Source: Streptomyces brevispora
Lineage (GTDB): Bacteria; Actinomycetota; Actinomycetes; Streptomycetales; Streptomycetaceae
Length of the DNA: 64,000 nt
Direction of reading: 5' to 3'
NCBI RefSeq assembly: GCF_007829885.1
Contig: NZ_VIWW01000001.1
Coordinates: 4,526,001 to 4,590,000, forward strand
Below the pieces are notes generated by a model. The model worked only from the letters and a program-made list of their open reading frames with translations, was not told the DNA's origin and ran no database searches. The translations under genes were made by a program, and so were the position numbers. Every line of letters starts with the position of its first letter. Positions within the stretch are counted from its first letter, which is position 1. Of the stretch, positions 18,120 through 25,453 are shown piece by piece.

Positions 18120-19820
18120 ATGGACGCTGACGCGATCGAGGAAGGCCGCCAACGCTGGCAGGCCCGTTACGACAAGGCCCGCAAGCGTGACGCGGACTTC
18201 ACCACGCTCTCCGGGGATCCGGTCGAGCCCGCCTACGGCCCCCGGCCCGGGGACACGTACGAGGGTTTCGAGCGGATCGGCTGGCCCGGCGAGTACCCCT
18301 TCACCCGCGGGCTCTACCCGACCGGCTACCGCGGCCGCACCTGGACGATCCGCCAGTTCGCCGGCTTCGGCAACGCCGAGCAGACCAACGAGCGCTACAA
18401 GATGATCCTGGCCGCGGGCGGCGGCGGACTCAGCGTCGCCTTCGACATGCCGACGCTGATGGGCCGCGACTCGGACGACCCGCGCGCGCTCGGCGAGGTC
18501 GGCCACTGCGGGGTGGCCATCGACTCCGCCGCCGACATGGAGGTCCTCTTCAAGGACATCCCGCTCGGTGACGTCACGACGTCGATGACGATCAGCGGCC
18601 CCGCCGTGCCGGTCTTCTGCATGTACCTGGTCGCCGCCGAGCGCCAGGGCGTCGACCCGGCCGTGCTCAACGGCACGCTCCAGACGGACATCTTCAAGGA
18701 GTACATCGCGCAGAAGGAGTGGCTCTTCCAGCCCGAGCCCCATCTGCGTCTCATCGGCGACCTGATGGAGCACTGCGCCCGCGACATCCCCGCCTACAAG
18801 CCGCTCTCCGTCTCCGGCTACCACATCCGCGAGGCCGGAGCCACGGCCGCGCAGGAGCTGGCGTACACCCTCGCCGACGGCTTCGGCTACGTGGAGCTCG
18901 GCCTCTCCCGCGGGCTGGACGTCGACACCTTCGCGCCCGGCCTCTCCTTCTTCTTCGACGCGCACCTCGACTTCTTCGAGGAGATCGCCAAGTTCCGCGC
19001 GGCCCGTCGGATCTGGGCCCGCTGGATGAAGGAGACGTACGGCGCGAAGACCGACAAGGCGCAGTGGCTCCGCTTCCACACCCAGACCGCCGGCGTCTCG
19101 CTCACCGCCCAGCAGCCGTACAACAACGTCGTACGGACCGCGGTCGAGGCGCTCTCCGCCGTTCTGGGCGGCACGAACTCCCTGCACACCAACGCCCTCG
19201 ACGAGACCCTGGCGCTCCCCTCCGAGCAGGCCGCCGAGATCGCCCTGCGCACCCAGCAGGTGCTGATGGAGGAGACCGGCGTCGCCAATGTGGCCGACCC
19301 GCTGGGCGGCTCCTGGTACGTGGAGCAGCTCACCGACCGGATCGAGGCGGACGCCGAGAAGATCTTCGAGCAGATCAAGGAGCGCGGCACCCGGGCCCAC
19401 CTCGACGGGCAGCACCCGATCGGCCCGATGACCTCCGGCATCCTGCGCGGCATCGAGGACGGCTGGTTCACCGGCGAGATCGCCGAATCCGCCTTCCGTT
19501 ACCAGCGGTCGCTGGAGAAGGGCGAGAAGCGGGTCGTCGGCGTCAACGTCCACCACGGCTCGGTGACCGGGGACCTGGAGATCCTGCGGGTCAGCCACGA
19601 GGTCGAGCGCGACCAGGTCAGCGAGCTGGCCGGCCGCAAGGGCGGCCGCGACGACGCCCGGGTGACCGCCGCGCTGGACGCGATGCTGGCCGCCGCCCGC
19701 GACGGCTCCAACATGATCGCCCCGATGCTCGACGCCGTACGGGCCGAGGCGACCCTCGGTGAGATCTGCGGGGTGCTTCGCGAGGAATGGGGCACCTACA
19801 CGGAGCCGCCCGGCTTCTGA
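18120..19820 (+). CDS. icmA: Isobutyryl-CoA mutase large subunit
   Basis: A 566-residue adenosylcobalamin-dependent mutase subunit without the B12-binding domain, exactly the known IcmA length. It interconverts isobutyryl-CoA and n-butyryl-CoA with a separate small B12-binding subunit (IcmB), which is not in this window. Two residues separate it from methylmalonyl-CoA mutase: Phe80 in TIRQFAGFG (Tyr in MCM) and Gln198 in IAQKEWLF (Arg in MCM); both match isobutyryl-CoA mutase. The ATG at 18120 follows a long palindrome. MeaB, encoded at 8597, may serve it. It links valine catabolism to butyryl- and methylmalonyl-CoA polyketide precursors. Confidence 0.95.
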   Translation: MDADAIEEGRQRWQARYDKARKRDADFTTLSGDPVEPAYGPRPGDTYEGFERIGWPGEYPFTRGLYPTGYRGRTWTIRQFAGFGNAEQTNERYKMILAAGGGGLSVAFDMPTLMGRDSDDPRALGEVGHCGVAIDSAADMEVLFKDIPLGDVTTSMTISGPAVPVFCMYLVAAERQGVDPAVLNGTLQTDIFKEYIAQKEWLFQPEPHLRLIGDLMEHCARDIPAYKPLSVSGYHIREAGATAAQELAYTLADGFGYVELGLSRGLDVDTFAPGLSFFFDAHLDFFEEIAKFRAARRIWARWMKETYGAKTDKAQWLRFHTQTAGVSLTAQQPYNNVVRTAVEALSAVLGGTNSLHTNALDETLALPSEQAAEIALRTQQVLMEETGVANVADPLGGSWYVEQLTDRIEADAEKIFEQIKERGTRAHLDGQHPIGPMTSGILRGIEDGWFTGEIAESAFRYQRSLEKGEKRVVGVNVHHGSVTGDLEILRVSHEVERDQVSELAGRKGGRDDARVTAALDAMLAAARDGSNMIAPMLDAVRAEATLGEICGVLREEWGTYTEPPGF

Positions 19821-20184: not shown

Positions 20185-22805
20185 ATGACCAGGGAACGGT
20201 GGATCGTGAAGACCAGAATCCGGAAGAGACCGGGCGGCACCCGGCCTGGTGTGGCCAGGCTGATGACAGCCACGGCGTTCGTCACCGCGCTGTCGACAGT
20301 GACGACGCTCGCCCACGCGGTGCCCAACAAGCCGTCGGCGCCGCAGAGCGCGACGGCCGCGGACGAGGACGCGTCGCCCGTCTATCCCCTCAAGGGGGAG
20401 GTCGCGCACTATGACTTCGAGTGGAGCGAGCCGGAGTACACCCCGACTTCGGGCGAGCTTGAAGGCGGACCGGAGGCCACCCATCACAATGGCATCTACG
20501 CCGGAGAGAGGACGGACAACGAGTCCATTTGGGGCGGCGGATCCGGGGGCCGCACGCTGCGGTTGGACGGGGTGGACGACTACCTCACCGTTCCGGTGCC
20601 GCTGCCCACGGACCAGTCCTTCACTGTCTCGGCGTGGCTGCGCTCGGAGAAGCCGGGCAAGGCCTACACGGTCATCTCGCAGCCGGGTAGCCAGGTCTCC
20701 GGCTTCGAGCTGAGGATCAACGCGGACGGCAAGCCCGCATTCGCCATGCCGAACGAGGACACCGCGGCGACGGCCTGGGACACCGTCACCGGCACGGCTC
20801 CCGTGGCAAGCGGCAACGACTGGAATGGTAACGACTGGACCCATCTCACAGGCGTCTTCGACGCGGCAGCCGGCCAGATCCGGCTGTACGTGAACGGTGC
20901 CCGAGTGGCCACCGCCACCCACGCCAAGGCCTGGCGGCAGGACAGCCGGCCGGCTACTTCCCGGGCCGCATGGACGACGTACGGGTCTGGAGCCGGGCAC
21001 TCAACGACCTCCAGGCGTCCGGCGCGGCCATCCCGCAGGTCATAGCGCGCGGACTACTGCACCACCGGCAACTGGCTGCACGCCGGTGGCCCGAAGGTCA
21101 AGGCCGCCGCCGCACAGGGCCTGGTGGGCCCCGCGGTCAACGCGCGCCTCGCCGTCTACACGTGGGGCGCCGGCACACTCGGAACCGCACGTCGCGAGGA
21201 CCAGGACGACCTGCGGGTGGCAAGCGCCGCCCATTCCACCCGCCAGACCGGGTGGGCGGGTGTCACGAAGCCGTTCGCCGTCCACAACGACGACTACATG
21301 ACGTTCCTGGAAGCACCCAACTACGCGCAGACGATGCTGCAGTTCCTGGGTGACGACGGGACGAAGAACTTCGACGGGCTGCCGCCGACCAAGCCCTCCA
21401 AGGCATCGCTCGACAACGCCATCGTCATCCTCAACCAGCGGAAGGAGGAGTCGAAGGACGAACCGTACGGAGGTGTCTACGGCTTCACCTCCGAGGACGA
21501 CCTCAAGAAGATGTCGGCCAACGAGATCGCCCGATTCATCCGGCTGGGCGGATTCCCCTCGGTGAGCCCGGAGAGCGACTCGCTCGAATTCCGCATGGAG
21601 GTCGAGGAGCTCAAGACCCAGTGGGCCGGCTGCGCGACGGAGGACCCCTACGGCGCGTCCGACAAGTTCAACGACGTGGTGGAAACCGCGGACGCCGAAT
21701 GGCAGGCGGAACAGGCGAGCCAGGCCAAGCAGCGCGGTGACCTCGTCGCTGCCGAGATCCAGGCCTGCAAGGACCTGCGCAAGGCCTCGGACGCGATGAT
21801 CGAGGCGCAGGGCCAGGCCTACATCGTCAGCCGCATGCTGGTCTTCCAGAAGTACTGGCAGGGCAAGCCGAAGACGGATCCCGACTACCCCAAGGCCGCG
21901 GTCTTCACCAACGCCACCACCGCGATCAGCAACGCCAAGAAGGCCATCTCCGCGCAGCTGACGATCGCGAAGAACGCGGCCGCCTCGGCGCAGACCCAGG
22001 CGGGCAAAGCTGCCACGGCACAGACGGACGCAGGGGCTATCGCGCTGGCCAACGGCACCCCGTACGGGCGCGGGCTCACCTACGCCCGGCAGTCCGCGCA
22101 GGTGATCAAGGCCTCGGCCTCCGCCGCACAGTCCTCGTCCAAGGCGATCGAGGCGACGCTGAGCGCGGTCTCGGCCACCGCGGCCGACAGCAAGGCGCTC
22201 TACGCACTCGGCGCCACGCAGTCCCACGCCGCTCAGAACGCCTTCAAGCGCGCGGCGGCGGAAGAGGCCGCCGCGCAGGCGAAGGCCGCCGCCACCGGCG
22301 CCGAACAGCAGGCCACCAAGGCGGCGGACAGCGCCAAGAAGGCCAAGGCCGCGCAGACCAAGGCGGAAGCTGCCGAACAGACCGCCAAACTGGCCGCCGC
22401 AGACGCGAAGTCGAAGCGAGCCACCGCCGAGAAAGAGCGTGACAACGCCAAGGCGCAGAAAGCCATCGCCGCCTCGCGAAGAAGAAGGGCAAGCCGAACA
22501 CCGTATGGACGAACGGGGACATCGCGCAGCAGGCGGTGGACCGGGTGGTCGCCGACTACTTCTACCCGAGAGGCGTCAGGAACAAGGCCGCCTTCGCCAA
22601 GCTGGAGAGGTGGCGGAACACTGCGGGACCGGGCGACTACTTCACCATCAACGGGAAATGGGACGCCTATCCATCGCTGGGCAAGGCCTACCATCCTGAC
22701 GGCAGCACCATCACGACAGCCGGCAACGAGGTGACTGTCCTCCTCAAGAAGTGGACCCACAAGGGACGCGGTGGCTTCGTCGTGTACACCGCCTATCCGA
22801 ACTGA
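20185..22805 (+). pseudogene. Decayed secreted LamG/coiled-coil polymorphic toxin
   Basis: The frame starts at 20185 with a signal-like N-terminus (TATAFVTALSTVTTLAHA). It runs through a LamG jellyroll (GGRTLRLDGVDDYLTVPVPL, FTVSAWLRSEK, WTHLTGVFDAAAGQIRLYVN) and shifts near 20945 to complete LamG (GYFPGRMDDVRVWSRALN). It shifts again near 21050 into DYCTTGNWLHAGGPKVKAAA. A long Ala/Lys/Glu coiled coil follows to about 22470. A third shift near 22480 enters AKKKGKPNTVWTNGDIAQQA and a C-terminal domain ending GGFVVYTAYPN. Domain order (signal, LamG, coiled coil, small C-terminal domain) is that of Streptomyces polymorphic toxins. Three frame breaks mean no full product. An intact gene follows 8 bp downstream. 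Confidence 0.8.
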
Positions 22806-22813
22806 GAGCGTCC

Positions 22814-23467
22814 ATGACAGTGCATCGATTTGACTGGGACTTCGGCTTCAGCCGGCTGACCAAGTTCTTCGCCGGGCCGTGGTCCCACGAACGGACCGTC
22901 GAGGAGACCATCGCGGACGCGGCTACGGGACACACGGACGACCCGCCCGGAGCGGCCGCCTCGGCGATCCTCGAGGACGCCGTCCGGCTGGAGGAGTCGT
23001 CGCTGCCCACCGAGGTGATCGCCACGGTATGGACGGTGGCCTCGGAAGGGGGCTACAACCTCGCTTATTTCGGCGTCGACGGACGGGACTGGCTGCGTCA
23101 GGTCGCGGCTGTCTGCTCCGGGCAGGTGCGGCAGGCCGATCCTGCCCGAGTGCCGGGCGTCGAGCCGGTCAGGGCCGCCGAGGAGTCGGTGGACGCGGTC
23201 GTGGAGGTCATCAGGTCGGCGGCACCTGCCCTGGCGGCCAAGGCAGCCACCTTCCACGGCCATGAGGCCGGCGACGTGGTCCGGGGGCTGGAACTGGTCG
23301 CCACCGAGGTCGATCCCGACCTCGGCCTCCGGCTCCTCCTCCGCGTGCTGAACGCTTGTCGGGTGCCGATCACCGACGCCCAGTACGCCCGGTACGAGGC
23401 CCTCGGCGAGGCGTTCGGCTACGGGCAGTTCCACGTCTCCGATGTGGAGCATCTGACCCGGTTCTGA
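22814..23467 (+). CDS. Hypothetical protein, probable immunity partner of the upstream toxin
   Basis: A 217-residue acidic, soluble protein with no signal peptide or transmembrane segment (MTVHRFDWDFGFSRLTKFFA ... FHVSDVEHLTRF). I do not recognise its family. The ATG at 22814 is 8 bp after the toxin stop, the usual toxin-immunity spacing, and no other gene shares the transcript. The frame is intact although the toxin gene is broken, which would fit selection to keep immunity against kin that still carry the toxin. The immunity role is inferred from position and properties alone. Confidence 0.7.
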   Translation: MTVHRFDWDFGFSRLTKFFAGPWSHERTVEETIADAATGHTDDPPGAAASAILEDAVRLEESSLPTEVIATVWTVASEGGYNLAYFGVDGRDWLRQVAAVCSGQVRQADPARVPGVEPVRAAEESVDAVVEVIRSAAPALAAKAATFHGHEAGDVVRGLELVATEVDPDLGLRLLLRVLNACRVPITDAQYARYEALGEAFGYGQFHVSDVEHLTRF

Positions 23468-23498: not shown

Positions 23499-23528
23499 GC
23501 GCCCCGGGGTCCTCAGACCCCGGGGCGC
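23499..23528. terminator. Bidirectional terminator overlapping the TetR gene end
   Basis: Perfect 13-bp arms GCGCCCCGGGGTC (23499-23511) and GACCCCGGGGCGC (23516-23528) with a 4-nt loop. The stop codon of the minus-strand TetR gene (23513-23515) is in the loop, so the hairpin includes the last codons of that gene. Confidence 0.85.
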
Positions 23529-24157
23529 CGTTCGGTCGCCGCCGCGCCCAGCCCCGCGAGCAGCAGCAGCGTGAAGCGCCGGGCCCAGTCCTCGTCGACG
23601 GGCTCGGCGCTCACCAGTGCCCGGTGCACCACCGCACCGGCGATGACGTCGAAGACCAGGTCGGCGGTCAGTGCGGCCATGGCCTCGTCCGCTTCCACCG
23701 GCAACTCCCCGCGTTCCTGCGCCCGCTGCCGGCCCTGGAGAACCAGCCGCTTCTGCCGGTCCACGATCGAGTCGCGGATCCGGGTGCGCAGCGCCTCGTC
23801 GCGGGTCGACTCCGCGATCACCGCCATCAGTGCGGTCTGGGTCTCCGGCCGCTCCAGCAGCGCGGCGAACTGGAGTACCACCGCCTGCACATCGGCGGAC
23901 AGGCTGCCCAGATCGGGCAGTTCCAGCTCGTCGAAGAGGACCGCCACCGCGTCCACGACCAGTTCGTTCTTGCCCGCCCAGCGCCGGTACAGCGTCGTCT
24001 TGGCGACGCCGGCCCGCGTCGCCACATCACCCATCGTCAGCTTCGACCAGCCGAGATCGACCAGCGAGGCTCTGGTCGCCTCGAGGATCGCCTCATCGGC
24101 CGCGGCGTTGCGCGGACGTCCCGTTCGGGAGGGTTTGGGGTGGCTGTGGCTCAGCAT
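23513..24157 (-). CDS. TetR-family transcriptional regulator
   Basis: A 214-residue regulator. The N-terminal TetR helix-turn-helix is clear: DEAILEATRASLVDLGWSKL, TMGDVATRAGVAKTTLYRRW, GKNELVVDAV. The C-terminal domain resembles TetR_C_16/AcrR-like ligand domains (ETQTALMAVIAESTRDEALR). The ATG at 24157 is chosen because the conserved protein begins MLSHSHPKPSRTGRPR. It is divergent from the thioredoxin-TPR gene. A perfect 10-3-10 inverted repeat about 100 bp upstream (24253-24275) is the likely operator, giving autoregulation. The ligand is unknown. Confidence 0.92.
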   Translation of the reverse strand: MLSHSHPKPSRTGRPRNAAADEAILEATRASLVDLGWSKLTMGDVATRAGVAKTTLYRRWAGKNELVVDAVAVLFDELELPDLGSLSADVQAVVLQFAALLERPETQTALMAVIAESTRDEALRTRIRDSIVDRQKRLVLQGRQRAQERGELPVEADEAMAALTADLVFDVIAGAVVHRALVSAEPVDEDWARRFTLLLLAGLGAAATERRPGV

Positions 24158-24475
24158 GACGCGACCATACCCGCCAGTAGCAAGAACCGGCCGGTCCCGT
24201 TGGCCGTGAGACAGATCACCGGGTACTCCTGTGCGGCGGGGGCGGTGGCCAGTTACGCTACGGGTCGTAGCGTAAGGACGACAGCCCAGCTGTTGTGACG
24301 CCACGGACGAACGACAGCCACAGGCGCCGGGTGGGGACCGGGTGCCGAACCGGGCCTTTCAGGGGCCCTCGGACCGTGTCTGTCCGTACACCTCGCACAC
24401 CGGCGGGGGGTCGCGGACGGGCGCGGTTCACGCAACGCTTTCCGGATCGGTGTGCCAAGGGGGGAGGATGTACGT
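24158..24475. other. Divergent promoter region between the TetR and thioredoxin-TPR genes
   Basis: 318 bp without a gene. It contains the TTACGCTACG inverted repeat at 24253-24275. At its right end is a strong GGGGGGAGG ribosome-binding site (about 24459-24467) for the thioredoxin-like gene. Nothing else was recognised. Confidence 0.6.
24253..24275. promoter_or_regulatory. TetR-type operator
   Basis: TTACGCTACG-GGT-CGTAGCGTAA is a perfect inverted repeat with 10-bp arms and a 3-bp centre, the usual geometry for a TetR-family operator. It lies between the TetR gene and its divergent neighbour. Confidence 0.7.
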
Positions 24476-25453
24476 ATGCAGCCTAGGAACATGTCCATGA
24501 GCGGCGTCGTCGACCTCGCCGCGGTGAAGGCGGCCGGTGAGGCCAAGGCGAAGGCGGAGCAGGCCCGTGCCGAGTCCGCCCGGCAGGGTGGCCCCGCCGC
24601 CGTACCCGCTTCCTCCCTCGTGTTCGACGTCGATGAGGCGGGCTTCGAGAGCGATGTCCTGCAGCGCTCCGCCGAAGTCCCCGTCGTCATCGACTTCTGG
24701 GCCGAGTGGTGCGAGCCGTGCAAGCAGTTGGGGCCGCTCCTGGAGCGACTGGCCCAGGAGTACAACGGTCGCTTCGTGCTGGCCAAGGTCGATGTCGACG
24801 CCAACCAGATGCTGATGCAGCAGTTCGGTATCCAGGGCATCCCGGCGGTCTTCGCCGTCGTCGCCGGACAGGCGCTCCCGCTCTTCCAGGGCGCGGCTCC
24901 CGAATCCCAGATCCGGCAGACCCTGGACCAGCTGATCCAGGTCGGCGAGGAGCGGTTCGGGCTCACCGGCATCGTGGTCGACCCGGACGCGGCTCCGGGC
25001 GCGGCCGCGCAGGAGCCCGCCCCGGTGCCCGCGGGCCCGTACGACGCCCTTCTGGAGGCGGCCGCACAGGCGCTGGACGCCAACGACTTCGCCGGTGCCG
25101 TCCAGGCGTACAAGAACGTCCTCTCCGACGAACCGGCCAACAGCGAGGCCAAGCTCGGCCTCGCGCAGGCCGAACTCCTGGCCCGGGTCCAGAAGGCGGA
25201 CCCGCAGCAGGTCCGCAAGGACGCCGCCGAGAATCCGGCCGATGTGCCGGCCCAGCTCGCCGCGGCCGACCTGGATCTGGTCGGCGGTCATGTCGAGGAC
25301 GCGTTCGGGCGTCTCGTCGAGACGGTCCGCCGGACGTTCGGTGACGACCGGGACCGGGTGCGGGTACGGCTGTTGGAACTGTTCGAGGTGATCGGCCCCG
25401 ATGATCCACGGGTCGGCGCCGCGCGTACCGCGCTCGCACGCGTCTTGTTCTGA
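24476..25453 (+). CDS. Thioredoxin-domain protein with C-terminal TPR-like region (YbbN/CnoX type)
   Basis: A 325-residue cytoplasmic protein. A charged N-terminal extension (residues 1-48) is followed by a thioredoxin fold with the active site WAEWCEPCKQ (Cys79, Cys82) and the cis-Pro region GIQGIPAVFAV. After an Ala/Pro linker comes a helical TPR-like domain (AAQALDANDFAGAVQAYKNV, SEAKLGLAQAELL) and a C-terminal GDDRDRVRVRLLELFEVIG typical of YbbN. Such proteins act as redox-linked chaperones or holdases. The ATG at 24476 has a strong upstream Shine-Dalgarno sequence. A good terminator follows. Confidence 0.92.
   Translation: MQPRNMSMSGVVDLAAVKAAGEAKAKAEQARAESARQGGPAAVPASSLVFDVDEAGFESDVLQRSAEVPVVIDFWAEWCEPCKQLGPLLERLAQEYNGRFVLAKVDVDANQMLMQQFGIQGIPAVFAVVAGQALPLFQGAAPESQIRQTLDQLIQVGEERFGLTGIVVDPDAAPGAAAQEPAPVPAGPYDALLEAAAQALDANDFAGAVQAYKNVLSDEPANSEAKLGLAQAELLARVQKADPQQVRKDAAENPADVPAQLAAADLDLVGGHVEDAFGRLVETVRRTFGDDRDRVRVRLLELFEVIGPDDPRVGAARTALARVLF

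What the first reader, a model, noticed from the sequence alone, without database searches (positions are those of the whole stretch)
20185..23467. Broken polymorphic toxin with an intact, immediately adjacent immunity-like gene
The gene at 20185-22805 has signal peptide, LamG, coiled coil and small C-terminal domain in the order of Streptomyces polymorphic toxins, but needs three frame changes (about 20945, 21050 and 22480) to be read. The following 217-residue gene begins 8 bp later and has no visible frame break. A retained immunity gene beside a dead toxin is what would be expected if relatives still deliver the toxin. The immunity protein family is not one I know.
Basis: partly seen in the sequence, partly recalled or inferred. 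Interest (0 to 1): 0.8.

Follow-up and report, generated by a model that had tools for sequence, protein, structure and literature searches.

The report
Dead RNase toxin beside intact immunity
A Streptomyces bacterium carries the recently broken remains of a secreted RNA-cutting weapon next to a still intact antidote gene, an ordinary outcome of bacterial warfare that points to a large, poorly catalogued antidote family often found without its weapon.

Summary
The gene at 20185-22805 is the remnant of a ~1690-residue secreted polymorphic toxin that is intact in S. californicus and one unnamed species (LamG, Ala-rich stalk, PT-HINT, RNase A-type tip). The break near 22480 is a deletion of roughly 2.5 kb. 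It removes ~820 residues, with the PT-HINT module and the His-x4-His segment seen in 54 of 54 full-length related domains; the toxin is dead in frame, processing and active site. The 217-residue gene is its cognate immunity gene: relatives in 90 of 392 Streptomyces genomes, an RNase A-type domain directly upstream in 57 of 100 loci. It has no Pfam or NCBIfam hit; 13 of 33 family members weakly match CdiI_2. At family level it gains some support: 37 of 100 loci match no RNase A-type toxin tested, nine lie behind smpB-ssrA, and six of those have median dN/dS 0.50-0.59. New member of a known kind; moderate interest.

The parts
20185..21045 (+). Toxin remnant, N-terminal piece: signal-peptide-like start and most of the LamG domain, ending at a premature TAG
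   Evidence: corresponds to the intact 1690-residue S. californicus toxin up to about residue 238
20944..21045 (+). Toxin remnant, end of LamG in a shifted register
   Evidence: (PF13385 profile positions 130-148, E 0.00039)
21046..22470 (+). Toxin remnant, Ala-rich stalk; matches residues 289-760 of the intact toxin at 83% identity
22473..22487 (+). Zone of a deletion of roughly 2.5 kb relative to the intact orthologues; about 820 residues missing, including PT-HINT and the first part of the RNase A-type domain with its His-x4-His segment
22482..22805 (+). Toxin remnant, C-terminal stub of the RNase A-type domain (keeps the T-x-Y end, lacks the N-terminal histidines)
   Evidence: 88-89% identical to the S. 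californicus domain
22814..23467 (+). Cognate immunity gene, 217 residues, intact, 8 bases after the toxin stop
18120..19820 (+). Neighbour: methylmalonyl-CoA mutase, upstream flank shared with S. californicus, S. cyaneofuscatus and G509; not found in the held stretch of G230 (L034)
   Evidence: PF01642 E 1.6e-207
23513..24304 (-). Neighbour: TetR-family regulator, downstream flank; lies upstream of the toxin in G230 (L034)
   Evidence: PF00440 E 2.4e-11
24452..25453 (+). Neighbour: thioredoxin-TPR protein, downstream flank shared by all four orthologous loci
   Evidence: PF00085 E 1e-24

Best explanation
The locus is a recently killed member of a Streptomyces polymorphic toxin-immunity pair. 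The intact form, seen in relatives, is a secreted ~1690-residue protein: signal peptide, LamG (probably holding the protein on the producer's surface), an Ala-rich stalk, a PT-HINT module that should cut itself to release the tip, and a C-terminal RNase A-type domain that should cut RNA in the target cell. The gene behind it encodes a probably helical cytoplasmic protein that most likely binds that domain and blocks it, as CdiI does for CdiA-CT of Yersinia kristensenii. In this genome three deletions broke the toxin; the largest put the stalk next to the second half of the RNase domain, out of frame, and removed the PT-HINT module and the histidine segment. The immunity gene is intact mainly because the loss is recent and the gene is a small target. 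Shown: the breaks, the deletion, the domain assignments, the pairing across species, the recency. Inferred: RNase activity, release by PT-HINT, binding and neutralisation.
For: Intact orthologues with the same order. LamG and PT-HINT (E 4.5e-17) in the intact protein; PT-HINT-like sequence in 51 of 57 toxin ORFs next to immunity homologues. The toxin-domain profile matches the solved Y. kristensenii CdiA-CT RNase 5e3e_B over its whole length (E 3.3e-5, the only chain at E <= 1); of its active-site residues (PMC9086364 passages) the window keeps only the C-terminal Thr/Tyr part. His-x4-His in 54 of 54 domains that cover the profile from position 4 or earlier to 126 or later (48 by the strict pattern, six read from the printed list); three partial matches (L094, L096, L140) were left out by that filter. 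Pairing with RNase A-type domains in 57 of 100 loci, two of them stubs, median 47 bases between the two domain matches. Equal N/S on broken and intact branches. In the own genome one stalk match and one RNase A-type match over the cut-off, both at this locus.
Against: No function was tested. The immunity protein itself has no family hit, and its model is too poor to compare (mean pLDDT 47.5). The CdiI link rests on weak profile hits in relatives (13 of 33); the CdiI chain 5e3e_A appears at E 0.56 in one PDB search, below chance-like MHC hits, and not at all at E <= 10 in a second. The arginine of the Yersinia active site was not placed in the Streptomyces domain. LamG was found in 0 of 57 other toxin ORFs and the stalk in 3 of 57, but only about 3.5 kb upstream were held, so how general the full architecture is stays open.
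Confidence: 0.85

Rival explanations
1. Selection keeps the immunity gene here as an orphan defence because neighbouring Streptomyces still deliver the toxin.
For: Two intact toxins in close relatives. S. cyaneofuscatus keeps the immunity gene with no match to the toxin upstream. In G509 the toxin is split by a frame change in PT-HINT while immunity is whole: 3 of 5 orthologous loci have no readable toxin, 5 of 5 have whole immunity. Six orphan copies behind smpB-ssrA have median dN/dS 0.50 and 0.59 (second and first domain; ranges 0.41-0.77 and 0.24-1.11), like 11 toxin-paired ones (0.48 and 0.45), and no stops, whereas neutral drift left 14-46% of simulated lineages stop-free.
Against: At this locus the toxin died too recently to tell. 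On the S. cyaneofuscatus orphan branch N/S is the highest of the four (11 N, 5 S, 0.79), which hints at relaxed constraint. Immunity copies are also frame-broken in some loci, with matches split over different frames in L091, L093, L122 and L123.
Confidence: 0.35
2. The breaks are sequencing or assembly errors and the toxin is intact in the organism.
For: Two of the three changes are small and lie about 100 bases apart.
Against: The third is a deletion of roughly 2.5 kb, not a base-call error. Long ORFs cover most of the window. The genome is given as 100% complete in 3 contigs and holds no other copy of the stalk.
Confidence: 0.05
3. The C-terminal stub and the immunity gene are a repurposed small module (for example the stub's coding region carries the immunity gene's promoter or ribosome coupling, or the stub is a decoy).
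For: Four other loci (L096, L109, L130, L140) keep a C-terminal stub, with no match to the histidine segment at E <= 0.01, directly upstream of a whole immunity gene. Stand-alone half RNase A domains occur elsewhere in the genus.
Against: 37 of 43 loci without the RNase A-type domain show no match to the toxins tested, so immunity is kept there without a recognisable stub. The window stub shows no clear change of constraint (4 N, 4 S on its branch), though that is very little data.
Confidence: 0.08

Closest known systems
CdiA-CT/CdiI of Yersinia kristensenii (RNase A-type toxin with all-helical immunity protein; PDB 5e3e)
   Same: The toxin-domain profile aligns to 5e3e_B from end to end; a small, probably all-helical protein is encoded next to it (helices at low confidence; CdiI helical per the table passage).
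   Different: LamG plus PT-HINT in the intact relatives; CdiA filament parts and CdiB were not looked for. Immunity is about twice as long (217 against 104 residues of 5e3e_A). In the window the part with the catalytic histidine is deleted.
Polymorphic toxins with N-terminal laminin-G and a self-cutting module (Zhang et al. 2012, PMC3482391, passages seen)
   Same: N-terminal laminin-G thought to anchor the toxin to the producer's wall, autoproteolytic release of a variable tip, adjacent immunity gene, poly-immunity proteins.
   Different: The passages I read there (found by five terms) do not describe this toxin-immunity pair; the rest of the paper was not read.
Streptomyces umbrella toxins (UmbC; PMC13274773, passages seen)
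   Same: Streptomyces, coiled-coil stalk, variable toxin tip, predicted RNase tip in S. griseus with a predicted immunity gene downstream.
   Different: UmbC has a ring of eight degenerate repeats; Pfam reported no repeat family here. UmbA and UmbB genes were not looked for.
Orphan immunity genes (T6SS and others; PMC12247911, PMC10539506, starts of abstracts seen)
   Same: Immunity genes kept without a cognate toxin, which may protect against foreign toxin.
   Different: Here secreted toxins of a Gram-positive genus; protection untested.

Membership tests
RNAse_A_bac toxin domain (PF18431) | Profile match over the domain | tested here: met
   Window stub 26.9 bits, just under the cut-off of 27; 31.9 bits, over it, when the search reads on through a TGA; 135 of 392 genus genomes over the cut-off
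RNAse_A_bac toxin domain (PF18431) | N-terminal catalytic histidine segment (His-x4-His in this clade) | tested here: not met
   Absent from the window by deletion; present in 54 of 54 full-length relatives
RNAse_A_bac toxin domain (PF18431) | C-terminal Thr-x-Tyr active-site residues | tested here: met
   YTAYP end in the window and the closest relatives; Thr-x-Tyr/Phe/His in 53 of 54 full-length relatives
Polymorphic toxin system | Secreted multidomain protein with releasing module and C-terminal toxin, immunity gene directly downstream | tested here: met
   Met by the intact orthologues L033 and L034 (secretion judged from sequence); the window copy lacks PT-HINT and an open frame
CdiI_2 immunity (PF18593) | Profile match of the window protein itself | tested here: not met
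   P0004: 0 families
CdiI_2 immunity (PF18593) | Profile match of homologues in the corresponding region | tested here: inconclusive
   13 of 33 at E <= 0.05, best 8.2e-7; of 8 relatives scanned singly one passes the cut-off (L109, 26.8 against 26.7) and one has no hit; region corresponds to P0004 residues 42-99; PDB searches do not settle it
Two-partner CDI system (CdiB/CdiA) | CdiB transporter and CdiA filament | not tested
   CdiB was not searched for; Pfam reported LamG and Hint-type families in the intact toxins and no filament family
Umbrella toxin (UmbC) | Ring of eight degenerate repeats with stalk | tested here: inconclusive
   No repeat family found by Pfam in the intact toxins or in the window pieces; degenerate repeats could be missed and no structure of the toxin was modelled

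The most novel reading that the evidence does not exclude
Streptomyces carry a genus-wide antidote family, distantly CdiI-like and often fused in tandem, that lives a life of its own: once toxins die or leave, the antidotes are kept as inherited or acquired protection, including at a recurrent site behind smpB-ssrA, and the window shows one such antidote at the moment its weapon has just been lost.
Probability: 0.35. Interest if true: 0.55.

Novelty: new member of a known kind. Interest (0 to 1): 0.36.

Why it matters
It gives a step-by-step series for one toxin-immunity pair (intact, frame-broken, active-site-deleted, gone) in closely related Streptomyces, and an immunity family present in 90 of 392 genomes whose window member no Pfam or NCBIfam model recognises. 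That makes it possible to ask directly whether antidotes outlive their toxins because they protect or only because they are small targets.

Tried and rejected
Structure: the immunity protein was modelled from three sequences (window, L032, L033); mean pLDDT 47.5, all helical, not good enough for a fold search, so none was run. PDB profile searches of the immunity family gave MHC class I chains on top (best E 0.027, 0.0046); rejected as chance. Sequencing error rejected because of the large deletion. A programmed-frameshift reading was considered and rejected because the histidine segment is absent. The idea that retention at this locus proves selection was tested by branch-wise counts and is not supported. 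Limits: the branch test is parsimony on three sequences, drops codons that differ in all three and leaves out the ~100-base shifted stretch; the neutral N/S of 2.9 and the GC-biased spectrum are my assumptions. One search used rows printed only (the tool said that more were not listed); the window genome's own row, rows that were further copies beside a listed one and one duplicate-contig row were left out, giving 100 loci. Of 128 well-covered immunity domains (70 listed after a redundancy filter), alignment A1 held 32 plus the window protein; A2 held 22 toxin domains plus the window stub. The remnant search used 51 RNase A-type toxin sequences (S. californicus and the 50 of 57 neighbours' ORFs over 400 codons) at E <= 1e-5, so other kinds of toxin upstream are not excluded. 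Orphan dN/dS used 6 of the 9 ssrA-linked loci. The comparison loci for dN/dS were chosen by me, 11 paired and 6 plus 3 orphan loci; the three other orphans (L058, L059, L061) gave 0.38 and 0.60.

Full report
What is there. The gene opens at 20185 and reads through a secretion-signal-like start and most of a LamG domain to a TAG at 21043-21045; the end of LamG lies in a second register; the stalk is open in the first register from 21046 to about 22470; the C-terminal stub lies in the second register again, to 22805. The immunity-like ORF starts 8 bases later at 22814 and is whole.

What the intact gene looks like. A scan of GTDB genomes with the 217-residue protein returned the orthologous locus in S. 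cyaneofuscatus NRRL B-2570 (L032) and S. californicus NRRL B-2098 (L033), and whole-genome searches added G230 (L003, L034) and G509 (L191). S. californicus and G230 have an unbroken toxin of 1690 residues directly upstream of immunity. Pfam finds LamG (E 9.8e-29) and PT-HINT (E 4.5e-17) in the former. The window keeps residues 1-759 and 1580-1690 of that protein: about 820 residues are missing.

What was lost. The C-terminal domain belongs with PF18431, the bacterial RNase A domain known from CdiA-CT of Yersinia kristensenii; an alignment of 22 relatives plus the window stub finds that solved chain, 5e3e_B, and no other chain at E <= 1, at E 3.3e-5. The review PMC9086364 (passages seen) lists its active site as His175, Arg186, Thr276 and Tyr278. 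In Streptomyces a His-x4-His segment stands at the domain's start in 54 of 54 full-length domains and Thr-x-Tyr/Phe/His at its end in 53 of 54; 'full-length' means covering the profile from position 4 or earlier to 126 or later, and three of the 57 upstream matches fell outside. The window has the end and not the start. Together with the lost PT-HINT module this leaves no plausible route to an active, delivered toxin.

The partner gene. Of 392 Streptomyces genomes, the own one included, 90 have a homologue of the 217-residue protein. I fetched 100 loci made from the printed rows. In 57 of 100 an RNase A-type domain (two of them stubs) lies on the same strand within 500 bases upstream, with a median of 47 bases between the two domain matches; 51 of those 57 toxin ORFs also have PT-HINT-like sequence, while LamG was seen in 0 and the stalk in 3, with only about 3.5 kb upstream held. 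Many loci carry two copies fused in one ORF of about 430-575 codons. This repeated pairing identifies the gene as the cognate immunity gene. The protein itself hits no Pfam or NCBIfam family; 13 of 33 family members match CdiI_2 (PF18593) at E <= 0.05, best 8.2e-7, one of eight scanned singly just over the curated cut-off, in the region that corresponds to residues 42-99 of the window protein. No NCBIfam family was matched by more than one of the 33. That CdiI_2 was built on the Yersinia protein is my recollection, not a result. A direct profile search gave the Yersinia CdiI chain at E 0.56 once and not at all with a second alignment, so I call it a possible distant relative, not a member.

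Does the immunity gene persist because of selection? Counting changes private to each branch, the toxin pieces show 42 nonsynonymous and 61 synonymous changes in the window lineage, against 93 and 136 in the two intact lineages (Fisher p = 1.0). Under a simple mix of constrained and neutral time, having been dead for 20% of the branch is already unlikely (P 0.009) and 10% is allowed (P 0.105). So the death is recent and the whole immunity gene next door says nothing yet. The immunity gene was under constraint on that branch (12 N, 20 S, ratio 0.21), but most of that time precedes the death.

Relatives supply the longer view. S. cyaneofuscatus has only immunity; no match to the toxin is left, and a response regulator and a glycosyltransferase-28 gene (Pfam) and a sensor-kinase-like ORF (by eye) stand between the mutase and the immunity gene. 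In G509 the toxin is 96% identical to that of S. californicus but changes frame within PT-HINT; I cannot say whether that is real. All five immunity genes are whole. Across the genus 43 of 100 loci have no RNase A-type domain upstream, and 37 of these match none of the 51 toxin sequences tested. Four loci (two among the 57, two among the 43) carry stubs without a match to the histidine segment, with whole immunity. Nine of the 43, and none of the 57, lie behind smpB and the tmRNA gene, eight within about 270 bases and one (L117) about 0.9 kb away. Six of these have dN/dS medians of 0.50 (second domain) and 0.59 (first), close to 11 toxin-paired copies at 0.48 and 0.45, and no stops, where neutral drift left 14-46% of simulated lineages stop-free. 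Against this, the orphan in S. cyaneofuscatus has the highest N/S of its group (0.79 on few changes), and immunity copies are frame-broken in L091, L093, L122 and L123. The family-level case for kept orphan immunity is therefore fair but not strong.

Verdict. A real, recent pseudogene of a known kind of weapon with its intact antidote. Literature searches for Streptomyces with polymorphic toxin, immunity and RNase A (7 papers), for Streptomyces with polymorphic toxin and orphan immunity (2 papers), and for the two Pfam names (10 papers) listed no paper whose title describes this pair; most were seen only as listings, and the original Yersinia structure paper was not held.

Noticed in passing
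L053, L056, L057, L063, L065, L069, L093, L117, L128: Copies of this immunity family, mostly fused doubles and without a recognised RNase A-type toxin, lie behind smpB and the tmRNA gene ssrA in nine Streptomyces genomes, eight of them within about 270 bases; in L093 one copy is frame-broken.
   Followed up: partly
L195:3050-3358, L196:2427-2735: Stand-alone 103-residue half RNase A domains (PF18431 positions 25-113 in L195) lie two genes downstream of RNase A-type toxins; one search lists further short matches lacking the domain's start. They may be decoys, immunity proteins derived from toxin, or remnants.
   Followed up: partly
L096, L109, L130, L140: Four other loci where only a C-terminal stub of the RNase A-type domain was found directly upstream of a whole immunity gene.
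   Followed up: partly
L191:2886-8058: G509: toxin 96% identical to that of S. californicus but with a frame change inside PT-HINT; immunity whole.
   Followed up: partly
L197:982-2196, L197:4813-6501, L198:1325-2881: The window's own genome has three other PT-HINT matches, one with a colicin-DNase/WHH-type tip, so the strain probably has other weapons of this kind.
   Followed up: partly
L034:140-718: In G230 the TetR gene lies upstream of the toxin instead of downstream of the immunity gene, so the pair sits on the other side of that gene than in the window.
   Followed up: no
L032:1608-4964: In S. cyaneofuscatus a sensor-kinase-like ORF, a response regulator and a glycosyltransferase-28 gene lie where the toxin stands in relatives.
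   Followed up: no
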